Origin: Trichothermofontia sichuanensis B231
Lineage (GTDB): Bacteria > Cyanobacteriota > Cyanobacteriia > B231
Direction: 5' to 3'
DNA: 64,000 nt
Assembly (NCBI RefSeq): GCF_026240635.1
Contig: NZ_CP110848.1
Location: 374,501 to 438,500 of the forward strand
In this document: positions 38,253 to 60,293 of the stretch, one piece after another
How positions within the stretch are numbered: position 1 is the stretch's first letter
Layout: the number at the start of each line of letters is the position of its first letter
Translations under genes and position numbers: made by a program
Notes under the pieces: generated by a model
The model's database searches: none
What the model was told of the DNA's origin: nothing
The model's input: only the letters and a program-made list of their open reading frames with translations

Positions 38253-38570
38253 AACAAACGGCCTTACGGTTACTGTGCCGTTTGCTTGTCAGGATTGGCG
38301 TCCTGCTGTAGCGTCCTCCGATCGGGTGAACAGCGATCAATGTCAACAATAGACAAACAACAGACAAAATAGAAGCCCTGCTGTTGCGCAAACGCGAGCC
38401 AGGGCTAAAAGACGCAGTTAGGAGGTATCTCGCCCTCTACGGTAACGGCAGAATCGGGAAAAGCGACGTGACTTAACAAGTTTTTAACCTGATCCCAGTT
38501 TTTTAGCCGGAGCGATCGTGGCGATCAAGGCTGGGACAAACCCTGTAAAGTAGAAAGGTATAGCAAAGAG

Positions 38571-38678
38571 TGGCGATGGAGCTGGCCAGAACCGCCTCCG
38601 GCCATGCTTGAAGGTGAACGCAACTCATCGTTTTCTTAACCCAGCGGTCATCCTACTGTTGAGGCTGATGGCTCCTAC
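38571..38678 (+). ncRNA. Fluoride riboswitch (crcB motif)
   Basis: All conserved parts of the fluoride aptamer are present. Stem TGGC (38571-38574) pairs with GCCA (38585-38588) around GATGGAGC. GAACCGCC follows (38589-38596). A second stem pairs GCCTC (38594-38598) with GAGGC (38661-38665). The 3' strand is GGCTGATGGCTCCTAC (38663-38678), whose GCTCC can form the pseudoknot with GGAGC (38578-38582). ACCGC, GCUGAUG and CCUAC are the invariant words of the family. The loop closed by the second stem is 62 nt, longer than the short loop I remember from characterised examples. It controls the downstream antiporter and crcB genes, turning expression on with fluoride. Confidence 0.92.
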
Positions 38679-38684
38679 TATTCC

Positions 38685-38741
38685 GACTTGTGGCGGAAAG
38701 GTAGGGGTCTGGTTATCTAGATCGCTTTTCCGTAACAAGTC
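38685..38741 (+). promoter_or_regulatory. Possible expression-platform hairpin of the riboswitch
   Basis: GACTTGT (38685-38691) pairs with ACAAGTC (38735-38741), and CGGAAA (38694-38699) pairs with TTTCCG (38727-38732) inside it. It follows the aptamer by 6 nt and precedes the ATG by 40 nt. It could be a terminator or translation switch; the T-run after it is weak. Confidence 0.5.
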
Positions 38742-38781
38742 ACGTTGTTTAATCGATGCAATCTATGGTCAACGTGGCGTG

Positions 38782-40422
38782 ATGTTAGCGAGTTTAATCT
38801 GGATCTTGTTGATGGGATTTTTTGTCGGGCAGATTGCCCGTCGGCTTAAAATTCCGGCTTTGGTCGGCATGGTGCTGGTGGGCATTCTCCTCGGTCCCCA
38901 GGGGGGCCATGTGCTTAGCCCGGAGATCCTAGACGCAGCAGATTCCTTGCGCACGATTGCGGTAATGGTGATTTTGATGAAGGCAGGGCTGGGGCTAGAT
39001 CGGGAAAAACTGGCCCAACAGGGAAGCGTTGCCCTACGGTTAGGCTTTCTACCGGCCAGCGGTGAGGCGATCGCCGTGGCGCTGGCGGCCATGTGGCTTT
39101 TGCAGTTTGACTGGGCGACAGGGTTACTCCTAGGCTGCATCCTGGGAGCCGAGTCACCCGCTGTGATTGTACCGGGGATGCTGCGGCTGAAACGGTTGGG
39201 GTGGGGGGTAAAAAAGGGCATTCCCGATGCGATTCTGACAGGTAGTGCCCTCTCGGATGTCCTGCTGTTGCTAGTGTTCAGCCTCTTGCTAGCGTTTCTC
39301 TCCCAGGGGACGACGGGCATCACCTTGCCGGGGGGGATGCACCTGAGTGCATGGCAGTTGCTCCCTTTGCAAATCCTGTTGCAAGTAACCTTGGGGGTAC
39401 TCTTGGGCTGGTTGCTGGCCCAGCTATTGGTGTCCCTCCTGGCTCAGCAAAACTGGACCCAAACGGCGGTGCAAGATGGTATGGTGGCGGCGGCTTTTGC
39501 CCTGTTGTTAGTGATTCTGGCTGAGGCAGTGCCGATTTTCTCCGGTTATCTGGCGGTGATGGCAACGGGATTTTTCCTGATTGAATTGGATGCCCCCTTA
39601 GCGCGTCGTCTGCGCGGGGGATTTGACAGCCTGTGGACAATCGCGGAGATTTTTCTCTTTGTCCTGCTGGGGGCTAGTATTCAACTCCAAGTGCTGGGGA
39701 ATACGCTGGGCGTGGGGTTGCTAATCCTGGCGATCGGGACGCTGATCGGACGATCGCTGGGGTGGTATCTATCCACGCTGGGCAGTAATTGGACCCGGCA
39801 AGAGCGGTTATTTTTGCTGCCAGGCAATTCAGCCAAGGCGACGGTGCAGGCTGCGATCGGAGCGGTACCCTTGGCCCACGGCATGGCAGGGGGGGAAGCG
39901 ATCCTGGCGATCGCGGCGCTGTCAATCCTGGTAACGGCTCCTTTGGGAGCCTGGGCGATTCCGACCTTTGCCCCGAAGTTACTAGAACGGGGTGAAGTTG
40001 ACCCGACCAAGGTAGCCATTCCCCGTCGCATCGTTCTGCTGGCGGCGGTGGATACCTCACCGCTGGCCACCCAGGTGTTGCGGAAGGCGGCAGAACTCGC
40101 CCGTCGCAGTGATGCGGAGGTAATTGTGCTGCATGTGGTGCGGGTGGATGATCCCGTGGGTGTGGCAAAGTTGCGCGATCGGGCACGCCAGCTTCTGGCG
40201 GATATCCGTTACCAATTTGTGACCGTGGATGAACCTGTCCCGGAGGGGATTCTACACGCGGCCCAAACCTATGGCGCTGCGGAAATCATTATCGGGAAGC
40301 GGGGCCATCGCCCGTTAGAAGATGTATTAGTGGGTCTCCCAGGCGGTCCTGGAAATCAGTCCGTTACCCGTCCTGCTGGTGGAAGGGGACGATGTGTTGG
40401 CCCGGATGGCTTAGCTAAGTGA
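38782..40422 (+). CDS. Cation/proton antiporter fused to a UspA domain, 3' frameshift
   Basis: Protein of 546 aa as read. Residues 1-400 are a CPA-type Na+(K+)/H+ antiporter with about 12 membrane segments (IWILLMGFFVGQIARRLKIP, GILLGPQGGHVLSP, GAESPAVIVPGML). Residues 415-530 are a universal stress protein domain (RRIVLLAAVDTSPLATQVLR, IIIGKRGHRPLEDVLVG). After VLVG the reading becomes unlike any UspA. A change of frame near 40340 restores the normal end QAVLEISPLPVLLVEGDDVL and a TAG at 40412-40414, so about five bases appear to have been lost. The start is ATG 38782; the longer frame from 38608 would begin inside the riboswitch. It is probably a fluoride-responsive transporter. Confidence 0.85.
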   Translation: MLASLIWILLMGFFVGQIARRLKIPALVGMVLVGILLGPQGGHVLSPEILDAADSLRTIAVMVILMKAGLGLDREKLAQQGSVALRLGFLPASGEAIAVALAAMWLLQFDWATGLLLGCILGAESPAVIVPGMLRLKRLGWGVKKGIPDAILTGSALSDVLLLLVFSLLLAFLSQGTTGITLPGGMHLSAWQLLPLQILLQVTLGVLLGWLLAQLLVSLLAQQNWTQTAVQDGMVAAAFALLLVILAEAVPIFSGYLAVMATGFFLIELDAPLARRLRGGFDSLWTIAEIFLFVLLGASIQLQVLGNTLGVGLLILAIGTLIGRSLGWYLSTLGSNWTRQERLFLLPGNSAKATVQAAIGAVPLAHGMAGGEAILAIAALSILVTAPLGAWAIPTFAPKLLERGEVDPTKVAIPRRIVLLAAVDTSPLATQVLRKAAELARRSDAEVIVLHVVRVDDPVGVAKLRDRARQLLADIRYQFVTVDEPVPEGILHAAQTYGAAEIIIGKRGHRPLEDVLVGLPGGPGNQSVTRPAGGRGRCVGPDGLAK

Positions 40423-40439
40423 GCAATACAGAGAGGAAA

Positions 40440-40913
40440 ATGCCGATGATGCGTCCAGTGATGGCGATCGCCCTAGGAGCAGTGGCCGGCGCCTTAAGTC
40501 GATATTATGTGGGGCTAACTCTCACACCTATGACGACGACGAGCATTCCCTATGGGACCCTGCTTGCGAATGTGACGGGTTGCCTTCTGATGGGCTTTTT
40601 AGTCACCCTTTCGCTGGGGAAGATGGTTAACCTACATCCTGACTTGCGATTACTATTACTGACGGGTTTTTTAGGGTCTTATACGACCTTCTCCAGTTAT
40701 GAGCTAGAACTGGCCAAACTATTAATCAAGCGGCAAATTACGGCTGATCTACTCTACTGGGGTGGCAGTACCTTTTTTGGCTTTCTCAGCTTGCAAATGG
40801 GTAGCCAACTCGCTGAAAGGTTATTGAGTCATTGGGAAGCTTCTCTAGAACCCGATCCCCCCTCTTTGTCATCGGAGACATCCCCCCAGCCCATAAACAC
40901 TCGCGATCGATAA
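40440..40913 (+). CDS. crcB: CrcB/Fluc fluoride channel, first copy
   Basis: Protein of 158 aa with four membrane segments. Hallmarks are IALGAVAGALSRYYVG, the pore glycine-asparagine region YGTLLANVTGCLLMGFL and GFLGSYTTFSSYELE, where the Phe and Ser/Thr residues form the fluoride path. Fluc channels are dual-topology dimers that release cytoplasmic fluoride. ATG 40440 with AGAGAGG just upstream is preferred over the GTG at 40419. It carries a longer C-terminal tail than the second copy. The paired genes may form a heterodimer. Confidence 0.94.
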   Translation: MPMMRPVMAIALGAVAGALSRYYVGLTLTPMTTTSIPYGTLLANVTGCLLMGFLVTLSLGKMVNLHPDLRLLLLTGFLGSYTTFSSYELELAKLLIKRQITADLLYWGGSTFFGFLSLQMGSQLAERLLSHWEASLEPDPPSLSSETSPQPINTRDR

Positions 40914-40935: not shown

Positions 40936-41319
40936 ATGGATACAGGCCTTTGGATACCCCTAGCGATCGCGATCGGTGCCATTCCTGGTGCCCTCAGTCG
41001 CTACTATCTCACCTTGTTTTTTACCCAACTGTTGGGCAGTAGTTTTCCCTACGGGACATTAATTATTAACCTATCTGGTTCATTATTGATGGGATTTTTT
41101 GCTGTCTGGTTATCTCACCTCGGTGAGCCAGCTCACCTAGATTATTTGATTCTGGTCGGATTCTTAGGGTCCTATACCACATTTTCTACCTATCAGTTAG
41201 ATACGGCCAATCTCTTCAAAACGGGTAATTACCGCAAAGCCCTGATTTACTGGTTAGGGAGTCCCCTGTTAGGGCTGGTTTGTGTTGAAATTGGAATTGT
41301 CTTAGCTTTGCAATTGTAA
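40936..41319 (+). CDS. crcB: CrcB/Fluc fluoride channel, second copy
   Basis: Protein of 127 aa, the usual Fluc length, with four membrane segments. It has IGAIPGALSRYYLTLFF, YGTLIINLSGSLLMGFF and GFLGSYTTFSTYQLD. It starts 22 bp after the first crcB gene and is read from the same riboswitch-controlled transcript. Tandem crcB pairs are known to make obligate heterodimers with opposite topology; whether these do is inference from the layout. Confidence 0.95.
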   Translation: MDTGLWIPLAIAIGAIPGALSRYYLTLFFTQLLGSSFPYGTLIINLSGSLLMGFFAVWLSHLGEPAHLDYLILVGFLGSYTTFSTYQLDTANLFKTGNYRKALIYWLGSPLLGLVCVEIGIVLALQL

Positions 41320-59901: not shown

Positions 59902-60293
59902 TGGGAAATTCCTTAGCCTCTTGTTTTCTCTCAAACACTCAATATAACAAAATGGAACCTGTCCTCAACCAAACTGGTCCATACAGATACATTCAGTCAC
60001 AATCAGCAACGTTTGATGACACGTTGTCTCTGCTTCTGGACACTTTCACCTCTTTGCCCAGTATTAGGAACCGCCTAGGCACTGCCTAGGCGGAGTGTGG
60101 TGTGAGGAGTGAACGGAAACATGCGTCTCCGCTCCCTCTATTGTAAGCGACAGGCCCCGCTTTGCGAGTCATCTCCCCTCAGGGAGGTAAATTTCTTAAG
60201 ATTTTAACAACTTTTATTCCCCGCGCTTGCAGGCTACACCGCCGGCATAGAGATGCCTCCCAACGGTATCACCCGGTGATAGCCCTTAACCAA
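59902..60293. other. Intergenic region upstream of trxA
   Basis: No gene found. It includes a perfect hairpin, CCGCCTAGGC (60071-60080) and GCCTAGGCGG (60084-60093) with loop ACT; no T-run follows on either strand, so its role is unclear. A second, shorter hairpin CTCCCctcaGGGAG is near 60173-60186. Confidence 0.55.

What the first reader, a model, noticed from the sequence alone, without database searches (positions are those of the whole stretch)
38571..38678. Fluoride riboswitch with a 62-nt P2 loop upstream of an antiporter-USP gene
All invariant words (GATGG, ACCGC, GCTGATG, CTCCTAC) and the pseudoknot GGAGC/GCTCC are present. The second stem (GCCTC/GAGGC) closes 62 nt, whereas the examples I remember have short loops; the extension may fold separately. 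The switch explains the next genes: antiporter-USP, crcB, crcB.
Basis: partly seen in the sequence, partly recalled or inferred. Interest (0 to 1): 0.75.

Follow-up and report, generated by a model that had tools for sequence, protein, structure and literature searches.

The report
Fluoride riboswitch with conserved cyanobacterial relay
A fluoride-sensing RNA sits in front of an ion-transporter operon in a cyanobacterium; its long side loop is ordinary, but behind it lies a chain of competing RNA hairpins, conserved across cyanobacteria, that probably passes the fluoride signal on to the gene's start codon.

Summary
The element is a real fluoride riboswitch (RF01734, 38563-38684 +, 36.5 bits, cut-off 34), the only one in this cyanobacterial genome. 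It precedes a Na+/H+-antiporter-USP gene and two crcB genes.

The headline feature, a 62-nt loop on the second stem (P3 in the literature), is not special. The equivalent gap runs from 7 to 147 nt in relatives, and in one species the loop holds a repeat element present about 40 times in that genome. Here the insert folds no better than shuffled sequence.

Two things were missed. First, the last P1 pair is a G.G mismatch here (66 of 68 aptamers have all four pairs), so this copy may be weakened. Second, the 100 nt after the aptamer form an expression platform conserved across cyanobacteria: hairpin A re-pairs the pseudoknot strand, helix B competes with A, and hairpin C abuts the start codon and shares a strand with B. 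All three held in ten sequences not used to derive them. Most leaders lack a terminator U-tract. Computed start-site opening is easier in the fluoride state in 54 of 62 leaders, though only modestly here.

Best reading: a translational ON switch. Structure is well supported; function is inferred.

The parts
38559..38564 (+). Putative -10 box TATAGC, putting the transcript start at about the aptamer's 5' end
   Evidence: TATA[AGC] lies 6-32 nt upstream of the aptamer's GATGG in 31 of 68 leaders, against 4.7% of background windows; no sigma-70 site passed the consensus scan, so inferred
38563..38684 (+). Fluoride riboswitch aptamer (RF01734)
   Evidence: 36.5 bits, gathering score 34
38572..38587 (+). 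P1: GGC 38572-38574 / GCC 38585-38587; fourth pair is a G38575.G38584 mismatch
38578..38582 (+). Pseudoknot 5' strand GGAGC, pairs with GCUCC 38671-38675
   Evidence: sequence, alignment to RF01734
38594..38665 (+). P3: arms 38594-38598 and 38661-38665 enclosing a 62-nt variable loop 38599-38660
   Evidence: loop folds like shuffled sequence
38672..38707 (+). Hairpin A (OFF): CUCCUAC 38672-38678 + UUCCG 38681-38685 with CGGAA 38694-38698 + GUAGGGG 38701-38707; takes the pseudoknot 3' strand
   Evidence: 12 of 12 pairs here; 89.4% of cells paired in 33 leaders, 41-61% when slid
38685..38741 (+). Helix B (ON): 38685-38695 (GACUUGUGGCG) with 38731-38741 (CGUAACAAGUC); excludes A
   Evidence: 91.7% paired, 32-47% when slid; covariation above all 500 shuffles; predicted unaided by RNAalifold
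38739..38778 (+). Hairpin C: 38739-38747 (GUCACGUUG) with 38770-38778 (CAACGUGGC), three bases before the start codon; shares GUC 38739-38741 with B
   Evidence: 85.8% paired, 24-56% when slid
38782..40422 (+). Na+/H+ exchanger (CPA) - universal stress protein fusion gene
   Evidence: PF00999 8.5e-31, PF00582 6e-12; last ~25 codons out of frame relative to relatives
40419..40913 (+). crcB (fluoride channel FluC), first copy, GTG start
   Evidence: TIGR00494 above cut-off
40936..41319 (+). crcB (fluoride channel FluC), second copy
   Evidence: TIGR00494 above cut-off

Best explanation
A fluoride riboswitch that turns translation ON through a strand-exchange relay. Without fluoride, CUCCUAC (38672-38678) leaves the pseudoknot and forms hairpin A, which hides the 5' strand of helix B. 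The freed B 3' strand (..AACAAGUC) then lets hairpin C grow to full length against the start codon (OFF). With fluoride the pseudoknot holds CUCC, A cannot form, helix B forms and takes GUC away from C, and the start site opens more easily (ON), giving the antiporter-USP protein and, from the following genes (presumed one operon), two FluC exporters. The P3 loop is a spacer that tolerates insertions. Shown: aptamer identity, genes, conservation and covariation of A, B and C, and the overlap of their strands. Inferred: fluoride response, translation as the controlled step, direction of control, co-transcription.
For: RF01734 match above cut-off. A, B and C pair in 89.4, 91.7 and 85.8% of cells in 33 leaders, far above slid versions; B's covariation exceeds 500 of 500 shuffles and RNAalifold picks B unaided. 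Ten held-out leaders keep A, B, C at 88.0, 91.8, 89.5%, slid 52, 39, 38%. The R-Y-R triple shared by B and C changes in concert. Start-site opening is cheaper with the pseudoknot strand withheld by a mean of 3.20 (n=33) and 4.35 (n=29) kcal/mol, shuffled controls 0.36 and 0.91; 54 of 62 leaders above +0.5, 3 below -0.5. Nostocales leaders pair an anti-SD with the SD in 93.3% of cells with compensatory changes. Only 11 of 63 leaders have a hairpin followed by a U-run.
Against: For this window the opening difference is only 1.4-1.5 kcal/mol over -12..+6 and not beyond its shuffles (p 0.22), 0.5-3.6 over other spans. Hairpin C persists in the predicted ON fold. B and C share only three bases, so exclusion is partial. 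No Shine-Dalgarno is visible in type-1 leaders. The energy model omits the pseudoknot itself; some of the 62 leaders are near-duplicates; relatedness inflates shuffle tests. The P1 mismatch may weaken this copy. No experiment.
Confidence: 0.66

Rival explanations
1. Transcription attenuation: hairpin A, or the small hairpin inside B's loop, ends transcription without fluoride, as in Bacillus cereus crcB; B is an antiterminator.
For: Same topology as the known terminator/pseudoknot competition (PMC13273304); 11 of 63 leaders do have a U-run after a hairpin; a weak terminator-like site lies at 38706-38723.
Against: Most leaders including this one lack a U-tract after A. The weak site has 3 G-C pairs and the shuffled expectation is 0.6. 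Hairpin C and the anti-SD/SD helix next to the start codon are conserved, which attenuation alone does not need.
Confidence: 0.2
2. This copy is decaying: the relay works in relatives, but here the P1 mismatch, an unfolded P3 insert that can pair with P1, and a frameshifted first gene mean little or no fluoride response.
For: P1 G.G mismatch, 66 of 68 others intact; insert does not fold and pairs with the P1 3' arm in the free fold; antiporter C-terminus out of frame; weak opening difference.
Against: All invariant aptamer words, the pseudoknot and the whole platform are intact: A 12/12, B 10/11, C 9/9 pairs; the score still passes the Rfam cut-off; both crcB genes are intact.
Confidence: 0.1
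3. The long P3 loop is a separate functional domain (second ligand, protein site or kissing loop).
For: P3 domains of relatives fold better than shuffles on average (mean z -1.80).
Against: Gap length 7-147 nt across relatives; a dispersed repeat occupies it in L084; this insert folds like shuffled sequence.
Confidence: 0.04

Closest known systems
Fluoride (crcB motif) riboswitch RF01734; Bacillus cereus crcB transcriptional switch (PMC11077080, PMC13273304)
   Same: Aptamer with P1, P3 and pseudoknot; in the ligand-free state the pseudoknot 3' strand pairs into a downstream hairpin (P4 = A here)
   Different: A has no U-tract here; two further helices (B, C) relay the change to the start codon
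Translational fluoride riboswitches of Pseudomonas syringae and Burkholderia pseudomallei (used as controls in PMC13273304)
   Same: Fluoride control without an intrinsic terminator
   Different: Their expression platforms were not compared here, so I cannot say whether they contain a B/C-like relay; unrelated phylum
Fluoride-induced crcB/uspA/eno/ppaC operon of Enterobacter cloacae FRM (PMC5533749)
   Same: A fluoride riboswitch controlling an exporter together with a universal stress protein
   Different: Here USP is a domain fused to a Na+/H+ antiporter, and no enolase or pyrophosphatase gene follows

Membership tests
Fluoride riboswitch (RF01734) | Covariance score above the curated gathering threshold | tested here: met
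   36.5 bits against 34
Fluoride riboswitch (RF01734) | P1, P3 and the P1-loop pseudoknot | tested here: met
   Pseudoknot 5 bp, P3 5 bp, but P1 only 3 of 4 pairs
Fluoride riboswitch (RF01734) | Located in the 5' leader of fluoride-resistance genes | tested here: met
   antiporter-USP then two crcB genes
Fluoride riboswitch (RF01734) | Binds fluoride | not testable with these tools
   needs in-line probing or ITC
Transcriptional fluoride riboswitch (intrinsic terminator) | Hairpin containing the pseudoknot 3' strand followed by a U-tract | tested here: not met
   Hairpin present but at most 4 T in the 8 nt after it
Translational ON riboswitch | Alternative helices that sequester the initiation region in the ligand-free state | tested here: met
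   Conserved A/B/C helices with overlapping strands
Translational ON riboswitch | Ligand state changes accessibility of the start site | tested here: inconclusive
   Computed effect in 54/62 leaders, small for this copy; no experiment

The most novel reading that the evidence does not exclude
Cyanobacteria share an ancient complete fluoride riboswitch in which one covarying strand (GYC, 38739-38741) is exchanged between an ON helix (B) and a start-codon hairpin (C). The relay controls initiation without a Shine-Dalgarno, and Nostocales built the same logic with anti-SD/SD pairing. After transfer to methanotrophs the OFF helix A is decaying while B is kept.
Probability: 0.4. Interest if true: 0.6.

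Novelty: new variant of a known kind. Interest (0 to 1): 0.42.

Why it matters
Rfam models only aptamers, and expression platforms are usually too variable for covariation analysis. Here the whole path from ligand pocket to start codon can be read from conservation and covariation across a phylum, which makes a translational fluoride switch directly testable. It also ties fluoride defence to an antiporter-USP protein whose role in fluoride resistance I found no test of, kept next to FluC or CLC-type exporters.

Tried and rejected
The P3 insert as a separate domain: folds like shuffled sequence and has no full second copy in the genome. An 11-codon ORF in the loop (ATG 38604) was seen but there is no evidence for it. 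Terminator reading of A: no U-tract. The equilibrium mean-unpaired measure was weak (mean +0.09, 36 up and 6 down), so opening energies with A forced were used with shuffled controls. An alternative register of C with the start codon inside the hairpin fits the L014-like subgroup and this window but not most others. In Nostocales, helix B has no covariation support and A hardly varies; only the anti-SD/SD helix shows compensatory change there. Paper searches for a long P3 loop or for cyanobacterial fluoride switches gave nothing specific; Baker et al. 2012 is not held, so the novelty claim is limited by the library.

Full report
Observation. Rfam's fluoride model matches 38563-38684 with 36.5 bits against a cut-off of 34, the only match in the 4.4-Mb genome. 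The genome is cyanobacterial: a Yfr1 RNA lies in the window, and the closest relatives of the antiporter are in Leptolyngbyaceae, 82-83% identical. Two weaknesses were overlooked: the fourth P1 pair is G.G, against 66 of 68 aptamers with four pairs, and in unconstrained folding the start of the insert pairs with the P1 3' arm and hides the pseudoknot strand.

The long loop. The gap between ACCGC and GCTGATG is 68 nt here. In 61 distinct aptamers it runs from 7 to 147 nt with a median of 31, and L138 has 70. In L084 (Shackletoniella antarctica) the loop holds a repeat found about 40 times in that genome, so the loop tolerates insertions. The insert here is not a repeat of its own genome. P3 domains of relatives fold better than shuffled sequence on average (mean z -1.80), but this one does not (z -0.15). 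The extension is variable and, in this copy, apparently unstructured.

Genes. The first gene encodes a Na+/H+ exchanger domain plus USP, followed by two crcB genes above the TIGR00494 cut-off. Most cyanobacterial aptamers found by the RNA search alone stand before this antiporter. In several genomes the partner is instead a CLC-type channel with a GNNLL motif (that this is the fluoride-type CLC is my reading from general knowledge, not tested). In L089 only a short antiporter remnant remains before crcB-crcB. Conversely, 16 of 17 antiporter loci without a pattern match also have no Rfam match above cut-off, so the switch is not universal.

The platform. From the pseudoknot strand to the ATG the leader is conserved. 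Hairpin A joins CUCCUAC+UUCCG to CGGAA+GUAGGGG. Helix B joins GACUUGUGGCG to CGUAACAAGUC. Hairpin C joins GUCACGUUG to CAACGUGGC, three bases before the ATG. A shares CUCC with the pseudoknot, B's 5' strand lies in A's loop and 3' arm, and B and C share GUC. In 33 leaders the three helices pair in 89.4, 91.7 and 85.8% of cells, against at most 61, 47 and 56% when slid. B's covariation exceeds all 500 shuffles and RNAalifold finds B without help. The R-Y-R triple at alignment columns 25, 92 and 134 changes in concert. A covariance model built on these leaders finds matches in 55 of 291 genomes of the class. Ten sequences not used to build it keep A, B and C at 88, 92 and 90%; they were, however, found with that model, so this is a check of pairing and not a fully independent sample. 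In two of them (L127, L140) the coding sequence begins differently (ATGAAA..), so the leader pairing does not follow from the antiporter's first codons.

How it probably works. Most leaders, this one included, have no U-tract after A, so termination is unlikely to be general. I compared the cost of opening the start site (-12..+6) with A forced and with CUCCUAC withheld as in the pseudoknot. The pseudoknot state is cheaper by 3.2 kcal/mol on average in type-1 leaders and 4.35 in the rest, against 0.36 and 0.91 when the connecting segment is shuffled. In Nostocales the competing strand is an anti-Shine-Dalgarno that pairs with the Shine-Dalgarno in 93% of cells, with compensatory changes. This is the classical logic of a translational ON switch. 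For the window itself the effect is only 1.4-1.5 kcal/mol over that span and not beyond shuffles, 0.5-3.6 over other spans, and C persists in the predicted ON fold. So the general mechanism is better supported than its strength in this copy, which may be weakened.

Novelty and limits. The aptamer, the exporters and the idea of a hairpin rebuilt from the pseudoknot strand are known; a 2026 study gives covariation for aptamer plus that hairpin and its text does not mention cyanobacteria. I found no description of the B/C relay, but many riboswitch papers are not in the library. No experiment was possible. The energy model omits the pseudoknot, and related sequences inflate shuffle tests.

Noticed in passing
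window 40320-40422: The last ~25 codons of the antiporter-USP gene are out of frame relative to relatives (..VLVGSVSQAVLE..), which continue in another frame here; real frameshift or sequencing error cannot be told apart.
   Followed up: partly
L084 178-366: The P3 loop of the Shackletoniella antarctica fluoride riboswitch contains a ~115-nt repeat present about 40 times in that genome, a natural insertion into an aptamer loop.
   Followed up: yes
L050, L053, L054, L055: Methanotroph genomes (Methylobacter, Methylotuvimicrobium and relatives) carry this antiporter gene 78% identical with a cyanobacterial-type leader, suggesting horizontal transfer (or, for the MAGs, mis-binning); helix A is decayed in L050, L053 and L055, B is kept, and L054 has lost the middle of the aptamer.
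   Followed up: partly
L007, L010, L016, L089: Antiporter gene degenerate or reduced to a short remnant between the riboswitch leader and the CLC-type or crcB exporter gene, in several lineages.
   Followed up: partly
L086 upstream of 4001: Leptolyngbya sp. PCC 6406 has no recognisable aptamer before the antiporter but keeps the C hairpin GTCACGTT..AACGTGAC next to the start codon.
   Followed up: no
window 60069-60132 (-): Yfr1 cyanobacterial small RNA, 52.3 bits, E 1.8e-7; ordinary.
   Followed up: no
window 38493-38537: Imperfect inverted repeat TCCCAG..CTGGGA with a T-run in its 5' part, just upstream of the putative promoter; role unknown.
   Followed up: no
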